The position numbers were made by a program, and so were the translations under genes. Below are positions 18,230 through 18,682 of a stretch of 23,557 nt of DNA, piece by piece. The first letter of the stretch is position 1. Each line of letters opens with the position of its first letter. The notes below the pieces were generated by a model. It was not told where the DNA came from, did no database searches, and worked only from the letters and a program-made list of their open reading frames with translations. The stretch lies in the IMG/VR virus record IMGVR_UViG_3300045781_000050, positions 1 through 23,557 of that record. One strand, given 5' to 3'. This DNA comes from a virus.

Positions 18230-18682
18230 ATGACGACCAGAGTGACCGTAGAGGCCAACCACGGCTGGCCGGTGCGCGTGACCGCCACCGATCCGAAGAC
18301 TGGGAAGCCGTGGCCGGAGGTGATCGTCCCGGCGGCGGAGAAGATGGACTTTTATGTCCACTACAACATGGACCTGATAATCCACGAGGTTCAGCCGACG
18401 GAAGATGACGTCGAGCCGAAGATGTCCTTCGGCGGGGCGGTCGAGCACCTCAAGAGAGGCGGGCGTGTGGCCCGCGAGGGATGGAACGGCAAGGGCATGT
18501 ACCTGTTCCTCGTCCCGGGGTCCCGGTTCAAGGTCAACCGTGAGCCGTTGCTGTCGATCCTCGGCGAAGGGACCGAGGTGGACTATCACGCGTATATCGA
18601 CATGAAGACGGCTCAGGGTTATGTTGTGCCTTGGCTCGCGTCGCAGGTCGACATCCTGTCGAACGACTGGGTCGCCGCGTAA
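18230..18682 (+). CDS. tad2: Tad2-like (DUF2829) anti-Thoeris protein with extra N-terminal domain, 150 aa
   Basis: The C-terminal 87 residues (from MSFGGAVEHLKRG) match the DUF2829 pattern in order: GRVAREGWNGKGMYLFLVPGS, then PLLSIL, EGTEVDYHAYIDMKTAQG, and VPWLASQVDILSNDW. Characterised members, named Tad2, are phage proteins that bind and sequester the cyclic ADP-ribose-type signal of Thoeris immunity. Residues 1-63 (MTTRVTVEANHGWPVRVTAT, DFYVHYNMDLIIHEVQP) form a second small beta-rich domain not part of DUF2829. ATG 18230 has CAGGGAGAACATC upstream; upstream starts (GTG 18167, ATG 18176) would add a poor leader. It lies between terL and the portal gene in the late cluster, so it would be expressed late unless it has another promoter. 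Family firm, activity inferred. Confidence 0.88.
   Translation: MTTRVTVEANHGWPVRVTATDPKTGKPWPEVIVPAAEKMDFYVHYNMDLIIHEVQPTEDDVEPKMSFGGAVEHLKRGGRVAREGWNGKGMYLFLVPGSRFKVNREPLLSILGEGTEVDYHAYIDMKTAQGYVVPWLASQVDILSNDWVAA

What the first reader, a model, noticed from the sequence alone, without database searches (positions are those of the whole stretch)
18230..18682. Tad2-like anti-Thoeris domain fused to an extra domain in the head-gene cluster
The DUF2829 signature is clear. Members are known to sequester Thoeris signal nucleotides. Here it has a 63-residue N-terminal beta-rich extension and lies between terL and the portal gene rather than in an early anti-defence region. Late expression would be poorly timed for blocking Thoeris, so the fusion may have another ligand, a second activity, or be packaged.
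Basis: partly seen in the sequence, partly recalled or inferred. Interest (0 to 1): 0.75.

Follow-up and report, generated by a model that had tools for sequence, protein, structure and literature searches.

The report
Modular phage immune-signal sponge in head genes
This phage gene joins a protein part that most likely soaks up bacterial alarm molecules to a second small part that other phages carry alone or joined to different alarm-molecule sponges, so phages seem to assemble such counter-defences from interchangeable pieces, here placed among the genes for the virus shell.

Summary
In detail: 18230-18682 (+) encodes 150 aa with a strong Tad2-like domain (residues 65-148, Pfam E 4e-24) between terL and portal. 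The Tad2 half keeps 20 of 23 residues invariant in four solved Tad2 proteins and has the short insert of SPO1 Tad2 and ModTad2. The 64-residue N-terminal part is a separate five-strand module. Close relatives carry it alone in the same slot, so most simply Tad2 was added behind a resident gene. The module is usually alone (52 of 64 distinct proteins), but 7 of 12 fused forms carry a nucleotide-sponge domain: 3 Tad2, 4 Acb2/Tad1 hairpin. In 50 module-bearing records, 9 of 12 sponge domains are fused to it or in its next 3' gene. Sponge genes also precede terL in three relatives. The late position is not clearly ill-timed: staphylococcal and streptococcal Thoeris recognise major capsid protein (PMC12578639). 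Best reading: a two-domain counter-defence protein. Ligand binding and the N-module's activity are untested.

The parts
18230..18421 (+). N-terminal module, residues 1-64 (MTT..ANHGWPV..IHEVQP family), five predicted strands; found alone in the same slot of close relatives
18422..18679 (+). Tad2-like (PF11195) domain, residues 65-150, starting at an in-frame ATG; stop codon 18680-18682
18218..18224 (+). Shine-Dalgarno-like AGGGAGA before ATG 18230, identical in L070 and L072
15822..18170 (+). terminase large subunit gene (upstream neighbour), interrupted in frame by an intein
18692..20869 (+). portal / head-tail adaptor gene (downstream neighbour), phrog_332 E 1.3e-31
22040..23089 (+). major capsid protein gene in the same run of + strand genes, phrog_1357 E 1.4e-64

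Best explanation
The gene encodes a two-domain counter-defence protein. SHOWN: the C-terminal half is a Tad2-family domain with the family's predicted fold and signature residues. The N-terminal half is an independent small beta module that stands alone in the terL-portal slot of the nearest relatives and that, in other phages, is joined to Tad2 or to Acb2/Tad1-hairpin domains (two unrelated sponge domains, so at least two joining events; the tree suggests more). INFERRED: Tad2 was added behind the resident module gene; the Tad2 half oligomerises like other Tad2 proteins and sequesters a TIR-made ADP-ribose signal (gcADPR or His-ADPR class rather than cyclic dinucleotides, because its central insert is short). 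This keeps Thoeris-type effectors silent while capsid protein, the trigger of the staphylococcal and streptococcal Thoeris systems studied, is being made. INFERRED, weaker: the N-module is itself a counter-defence or accessory module that works alongside the sponge, and the fusion co-expresses or co-localises the two.
For: PF11195 at 85.3 bits. Foldseek matches of the model to ModTad2+hisADPR (9eib, E 2e-8), SptTad2, HgmTad2/AcrIIA7 and SPO1 Tad2. 20 of 23 residues invariant in those four kept; 54 residues between GWNGKxM and xDW against 52, 52 (SPO1, ModTad2) and 64, 70 (Spt, Hgm). dN below dS in both halves. Standalone module in the same slot of five relatives with terL 80-82% identical, and two tandem modules without Tad2 in the slot of the more distant L084. 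The window's module groups with L070, L072, L077 in a tree (96/86), and starred branches force at least 3 changes for the Tad2 label and at least 3 for Acb2. 7 of 12 fused forms carry sponge domains. 9 of 12 sponge domains in 50 module-bearing records are fused or in the next gene 3', 0.26 expected under uniform placement. Thoeris is triggered by capsid protein in the systems of PMC12578639. ThsB_TIR domains occur in 45 of 297 genomes of the order of one module-bearing bacterium.
Against: No binding or plaque data for this protein. The three primary Tad2/Thoeris papers I asked for by DOI were not held, so pocket residues were judged by conservation, not by contacts. The link to sponges is one-sided: of the 80 loci kept by the search with the whole protein, none with a Tad2 domain showed the module in its fetched stretch. 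52 of 64 module proteins are alone. Three of 12 sponge domains lie elsewhere in their records (1.9, 30 and 61 kb away). Other fusion partners are not known sponges (phrog_8618 three times, crAss001_48 once, an unassigned tail once). Tree changes may be gains or losses, two fused rows (L232, L216) sit on long branches, and shuffled labels need as many changes, so the tree only shows that fusions do not cluster. The two-domain orientation is unresolved (pTM 0.55). The window's host is unknown. The ThsB_TIR count is an upper bound for Thoeris, since many hits lie in long frames, and the centre genome itself had none.
Confidence: 0.68

Rival explanations
1. The fusion is a genetic accident in a cargo slot. 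A Tad2 gene landed in frame behind a resident small gene and borrows its ribosome-binding site and late expression; the N-module adds nothing to counter-defence.
For: The slot is a variable insertion point (63 of 85 relatives have under 100 b there; others hold endonuclease-like genes, crAss001_48 or unassigned genes). Tad2 begins at an in-frame ATG of its own. The N-module also joins phrog_8618 and other tails.
Against: The module is joined to two unrelated sponge domains, with at least 3 tree changes forced for each (gain or loss not told), and in three further cases the sponge is in the next gene: more than one accident. The uniform null used does not allow for accessory genes clustering together.
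Confidence: 0.2
2. The Tad2 domain binds another ligand, or none, and the N-module is the working part.
For: The N-module is usually encoded alone (52 of 64) and shows fewer non-synonymous than synonymous changes, so it has a function of its own. Three of the 23 family-invariant residues differ.
Against: The three changes are conservative (F91Y, I132V, A144S), and the GWNGKxM and W..S..D....DW blocks are intact. Tad2 dN is well below dS against L285.
Confidence: 0.1
3. It is a head or packaging protein (connector, decoration or ejected protein) that happens to use a Tad2 fold.
For: It lies between terL and portal and is presumably co-transcribed with head genes.
Against: Not conserved in the slot. 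The N-module is found away from head genes in EBPR siphovirus 2, RHph_I1_18, RcKemmy and RcDormio. Tad2 or Acb2-hairpin genes occur upstream of terL in relatives L110, L185, L179.
Confidence: 0.05

Closest known systems
Tad2 (PF11195/DUF2829): SPO1 gp34.65, ModTad2, HgmTad2/AcrIIA7, SptTad2
   Same: Same predicted fold and signature; 20 of 23 residues invariant in all four are kept
   Different: Six of the seven distinct solved Tad2/AcrIIA7 chain sequences found are 88-104 aa (one AcrIIA7 chain is 158); this protein has a 64-residue N-terminal module and lies in the head-gene run
Tad2-like P015 of Sinorhizobium phage AP-20-A (PMC13299392, passages read)
   Same: Tad2-like domain in a podovirus of an alphaproteobacterium; described there as the first reported in a rhizobiophage
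   Different: 97 aa with an 88-aa Tad2 domain, so no comparable N-terminal module
phrog_872-type proteins (YRGW-type N-part plus Tad2) and phage N4 gp49
   Same: Tad2 with a different N-terminal part, so N-terminal additions to Tad2 are not unusual
   Different: Their N-parts show no match to the module's HMM in the loci held (for the L002-L081 loci; N4 not tested with it)
Bacteriophage DSS3_MAL1 (record MN602268)
   Same: The only one of 356 matching phage records that covers at least 80% of the window protein
   Different: Its N-part starts differently and shows no module motif by eye; no isolate record with this fusion was seen
Acb2/Tad1 hairpin proteins (PF24729)
   Same: Another nucleotide-sponge domain carried behind the same N-module in L207, L211, L214/L215, L216
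   Different: Not present in the window protein
phrog_11999 (85 positions, unknown function)
   Same: Matches the N-module of L084 (E 1.3e-6) and L203 (E 1.4e-4)
   Different: Does not reach the window's own N-module (no hit to E 10)

Membership tests
Tad2 family (PF11195) | profile match above the curated cut-off | tested here: met
   85.3 bits, cut-off 25
Tad2 family (PF11195) | Tad2 fold | tested here: met
   Foldseek of the predicted model against PDB: 24 matches at E <= 0.001, all Tad2 or AcrIIA7/HgmTad2 entries
Tad2 family (PF11195) | residues invariant in four structurally solved members, including the GWNGKxM loop and the W..S..D....DW segment | tested here: met
   20 of 23 identical, 3 conservative changes; the unprinted middle of HgmTad2 was left out
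Tad2 family (PF11195) | homotetramer with composite pockets | not testable with these tools
   no complex prediction; described in PMC12043709 (passages)
Functional anti-Thoeris sponge | binds a TIR-made ADPR signal and rescues phage from Thoeris | not testable with these tools
   needs biochemistry and plaque assays
ADPR-binding (SPO1/ModTad2-like) rather than cyclic-dinucleotide-binding (Spt/Hgm-like) Tad2 | short insert between the conserved blocks | tested here: inconclusive
   54 residues against 52/52 and 64/70 (the Hgm middle length was set from printed chain coordinates); length alone does not prove ligand choice
N-module family (motif MTTxVxVxAxxGWPV...IHEVQP) | HMM match and shared motif with standalone copies | tested here: met
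   score 96 in the HMM built from A4, which includes the window row; 62% identity to the standalone copy in L070 over residues 1-64
phrog_11999 | profile match | tested here: inconclusive
   relatives L084 and L203 match, the window's own module does not
Conserved head/packaging gene | present in the terL-portal slot across the lineage | tested here: not met
   63 of 85 records have under 100 b between terL and portal

The most novel reading that the evidence does not exclude
The 60-residue N-module is an undescribed counter-defence module of alphaproteobacterial phages in its own right. It acts with interchangeable nucleotide-sponge domains (Tad2, Acb2/Tad1 hairpin), and the terminase-portal region of this podovirus lineage is a late-expressed cargo site for such proteins, timed to the capsid proteins that trigger Thoeris.
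Probability: 0.38. Interest if true: 0.75.

Novelty: new variant of a known kind. Interest (0 to 1): 0.6.

Why it matters
If true, sponge proteins are modular: phages exchange signal-binding domains behind a common N-terminal module. That module could then be used to find further sponges and unknown counter-defence domains among small phage proteins with no assigned function. The head-gene location fits the finding that Thoeris can sense capsid protein and gives a simple timing test. It would also correct the expectation that anti-defence genes sit only in early regions.

Tried and rejected
Virion or packaging role: rejected as leading reading, because the slot is empty in 63 of 85 relatives and the module lies elsewhere in other phages. 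Longer GTG start at 18167: rejected, homology and the ribosome-binding site begin at 18230. Separate translation of Tad2 from the internal ATG 18422: not excluded, but no well-placed Shine-Dalgarno was seen by eye. Fold of the N-module: no Foldseek match at E <= 0.001 in PDB or BFVD (best BFVD matches are unnamed small phage proteins, E 1.5e-3 and weaker); best VIA Z 6.0 (TRAP, 3zzs) is within the tool's stated noise, so nothing is built on it. DUF6898 (E 0.2): not significant. Mixed alignment A6 put standalone modules on top of Tad2 and was dropped; A5 and A7 replaced it. Tad2-domain tree: too few columns, 3 starred branches of 43, not used for origins. Module in bacterial genomes: 4 of 397 and 1 of 390 in two orders, the centre genome counted in each, so rare. 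Sponge genes in this lineage are not tied to the slot: L168 has Tad2 downstream of portal and L105 (terL 36%) 1.4 kb upstream of terL. Novelty in print: in the listings no title or abstract start named this N-module or a Tad2/Acb2 fusion to it; listings are capped, the library lacks most subscription papers, and only PMC13299392, PMC12043709, PMC11722364, PMC12657218 and PMC12578639 were opened (passages; for the last also abstract and outline).

Full report
Observation. The window is a 23,557-base virus record. ORF 18230-18682 (+) encodes 150 aa. Residues 65-148 match PF11195 Tad2-like at 85.3 bits, cut-off 25. The best solved relatives by sequence are ModTad2 (E 4.5e-18), Tad2 8v3e, HgmTad2/AcrIIA7, SptTad2 and SPO1 gp34.65. 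It lies between terL (15822-18170) and the portal/head-tail adaptor gene (18692-20869; phrog_332); the major capsid gene follows at 22040-23089 (phrog_1357).

The Tad2 half. AlphaFold2 on 42 aligned sequences gave mean pLDDT 88.5, pTM 0.55. In Foldseek against PDB all 24 matches at E <= 0.001 are Tad2 or AcrIIA7/HgmTad2 entries, the first being ModTad2 with hisADPR. Of 23 columns invariant in SPO1, Mod, Spt and Hgm Tad2, the window keeps 20; the changes are F91Y, I132V and A144S. For HgmTad2 the middle was not printed and was treated as unknown, so the 23 exclude that stretch. A review states that the gcADPR pocket is built from loops beta1-beta2, beta3-beta4 and beta4-alpha3, strand beta4 and helix alpha3, and that cyclic dinucleotides bind through an insert (PMC12043709, passages). 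The conserved GWNGKxM and W..S..D....DW blocks appear to correspond to these parts (my assignment). The stretch between the blocks is 54 residues, like SPO1 and ModTad2 (52, 52) and unlike Spt and Hgm (64, 70), which points to an ADPR-type ligand. This is inference from length.

The N-terminal half is a module of its own. A search with the whole protein kept 80 of 294 relatives. Five close relatives (L070-L073, L077; terL 80-82%, portal 87% where complete, capsid 92% where held) carry in the same terL-portal slot a standalone 71-aa protein that is only this module. L084 (terL 56%) carries two copies in tandem there, without Tad2. The ribosome-binding site and start are identical in the window, L070 and L072, and recognisable similarity fades at the end of the module. 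Most simply, Tad2 was added behind a resident gene; loss of Tad2 in the relatives is the alternative. Both halves show dN below dS: module against L070 dN 0.23, dS 0.53; Tad2 against L285 dN 0.20, dS 0.96; for the other Tad2 pairs synonymous change was saturated.

How widespread. Motif and profile scans and an HMM over 344 held sequences gave 138 hits and 68 distinct proteins; 64 score 40 or more. Of these 64, 52 are alone, 4 are fused to an Acb2/Tad1 hairpin, 3 to Tad2, 3 to a phrog_8618 domain, 1 to crAss001_48 and 1 (L084) has an unassigned tail. Pfam confirms Acb2/Tad1 hairpin in L207, L211, L216, L215 (E 7e-17 to 3e-9, all over cut-off; L215 holds the same protein as L214) and crAss001_48 in L217, and Tad2 in L285 and L250. 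On a 63-column tree the window module groups with L070, L072 and L077 (96/86); starred branches force at least 3 changes for the Tad2 label and at least 3 for Acb2. The tree cannot tell gain from loss, many forks are open, L232 and L216 have long branches, and shuffled labels need about as many changes. In 50,697 phage records only one place covers 80% or more of the window protein (DSS3_MAL1), and its N-part looks unrelated.

Neighbourhood of the module. With the module positions, six are fused (L216, L211, L207, L214, L285, L250) and three are in the next gene 3' on the same strand: L206, whose start overlaps the module's stop; L302; and L294, where the Tad2 domain begins about 280 b after the module gene and its gene starts with a YRGW-type N-part. 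One lies 1.9 kb upstream (L286), and two are remote (L198 about 30 kb; RHph_I1_18 about 61 kb). Uniform placement expects 0.26 in a 360-b 3' zone, and none of 2,000,000 simulations reached 9. That null ignores clustering of accessory genes. Seen from the other side, no Tad2 locus showed the module, so most Tad2 genes do without it.

Location. Of 85 distinct records with terL at 50% identity or more and both genes present, 63 have under 100 b between terL and portal, 7 have 100-199 and 15 have 200 or more. Slot contents among the larger gaps include the module, crAss001_48 (L154), GIY-YIG-like and HNH-like genes recognised by eye (L142, L156, L169) and unassigned genes. Elsewhere around terL, a Tad2 gene precedes terL in L110, an Acb2/Tad1-hairpin gene precedes terL in L185 and L179, and a module gene lies upstream of terL in L169 and L184. 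The head-gene location therefore recurs in this lineage. Portal relatives among isolates include Rhizobium, Roseobacter and Puniceispirillum HMO-2011 phages and Sinorhizobium phage phiM6 at about 22-27% identity, and Pseudomonas phage Rollin at 42%.

Timing. PMC12578639 (abstract, outline, passages) reports that staphylococcal Thoeris is activated by the major head protein and that streptococcal Thoeris cyclases also recognise major capsid proteins. A sponge made with the head genes would meet such a signal when it arises. No expression data exist for this phage, and Thoeris of alphaproteobacteria may have other triggers.

Hosts. The six bacterial contigs bearing the module are labelled Rhizobium rhizogenes, Phyllobacterium, Rhizobium sp. 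(MAG), Bosea, Luteovulum and Allorhizobium, all Alphaproteobacteria (recalled). ThsB_TIR occurs in 45 of 297 genomes of the order of the first; that genome itself had none, and many hits lie in long frames, so this is an upper bound. The window's own host was not identified.

Verdict. A genuine Tad2-family sponge candidate joined to a previously unassigned N-terminal module that phages couple to more than one kind of nucleotide sponge. Shown: domain identity, predicted fold, conservation, separate occurrence of the two halves, fusions and adjacency. Inferred: order of events, ligand class, tetramer, counter-Thoeris action, and any activity of the module.

Noticed in passing
15942-16814 (+), with 15967-16686 (-): TerL carries an intein at its Walker A motif (GPVG|C...HHN|SGKTT; PF14890 E 3e-6, 27.6 bits, below the curated cut-off 35.8). 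An HNH endonuclease ORF (phrog_10730, E 8.9e-50) lies entirely inside the intein-coding stretch on the opposite strand. L070, L094, L109 and L121 lack the intein; L084 shows intein-like sequence at the same site by eye.
   Followed up: partly
2190, 5364, 7558, 9970, 10601, 12541, 12841, 12992, 14571: A palindrome GTGAAYNNRTTCAC occurs 9 times in the window (one with a mismatch; 0.17 expected in shuffles), all left of 14600, most of them near minus-strand gene starts by eye: a likely operator or regulatory site of the left-arm genes.
   Followed up: partly
L294 3180-4412: A row of three genes: N-module, YRGW-type N-part plus Tad2, and Phage_gp49_66 (PF13876) plus crAss001_48. It looks like a cluster of small counter-defence-type genes.
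   Followed up: partly
L021, L038, L058, L060, L064, L076: A different N-terminal part (YRGW...GYISWSP, by eye) precedes Tad2 in several phages; in L021 it matches phrog_872 and phrog_32732, and the C-terminal part of phrog_32732 is matched by crAss001_48 proteins. N-parts appear to be swapped among these small proteins.
   Followed up: partly
L185 5526-5813; L179 1789-2019: Acb2/Tad1-hairpin genes (PF24729, E 3e-16 and 1e-12) immediately upstream of terL in relatives of this phage.
   Followed up: partly
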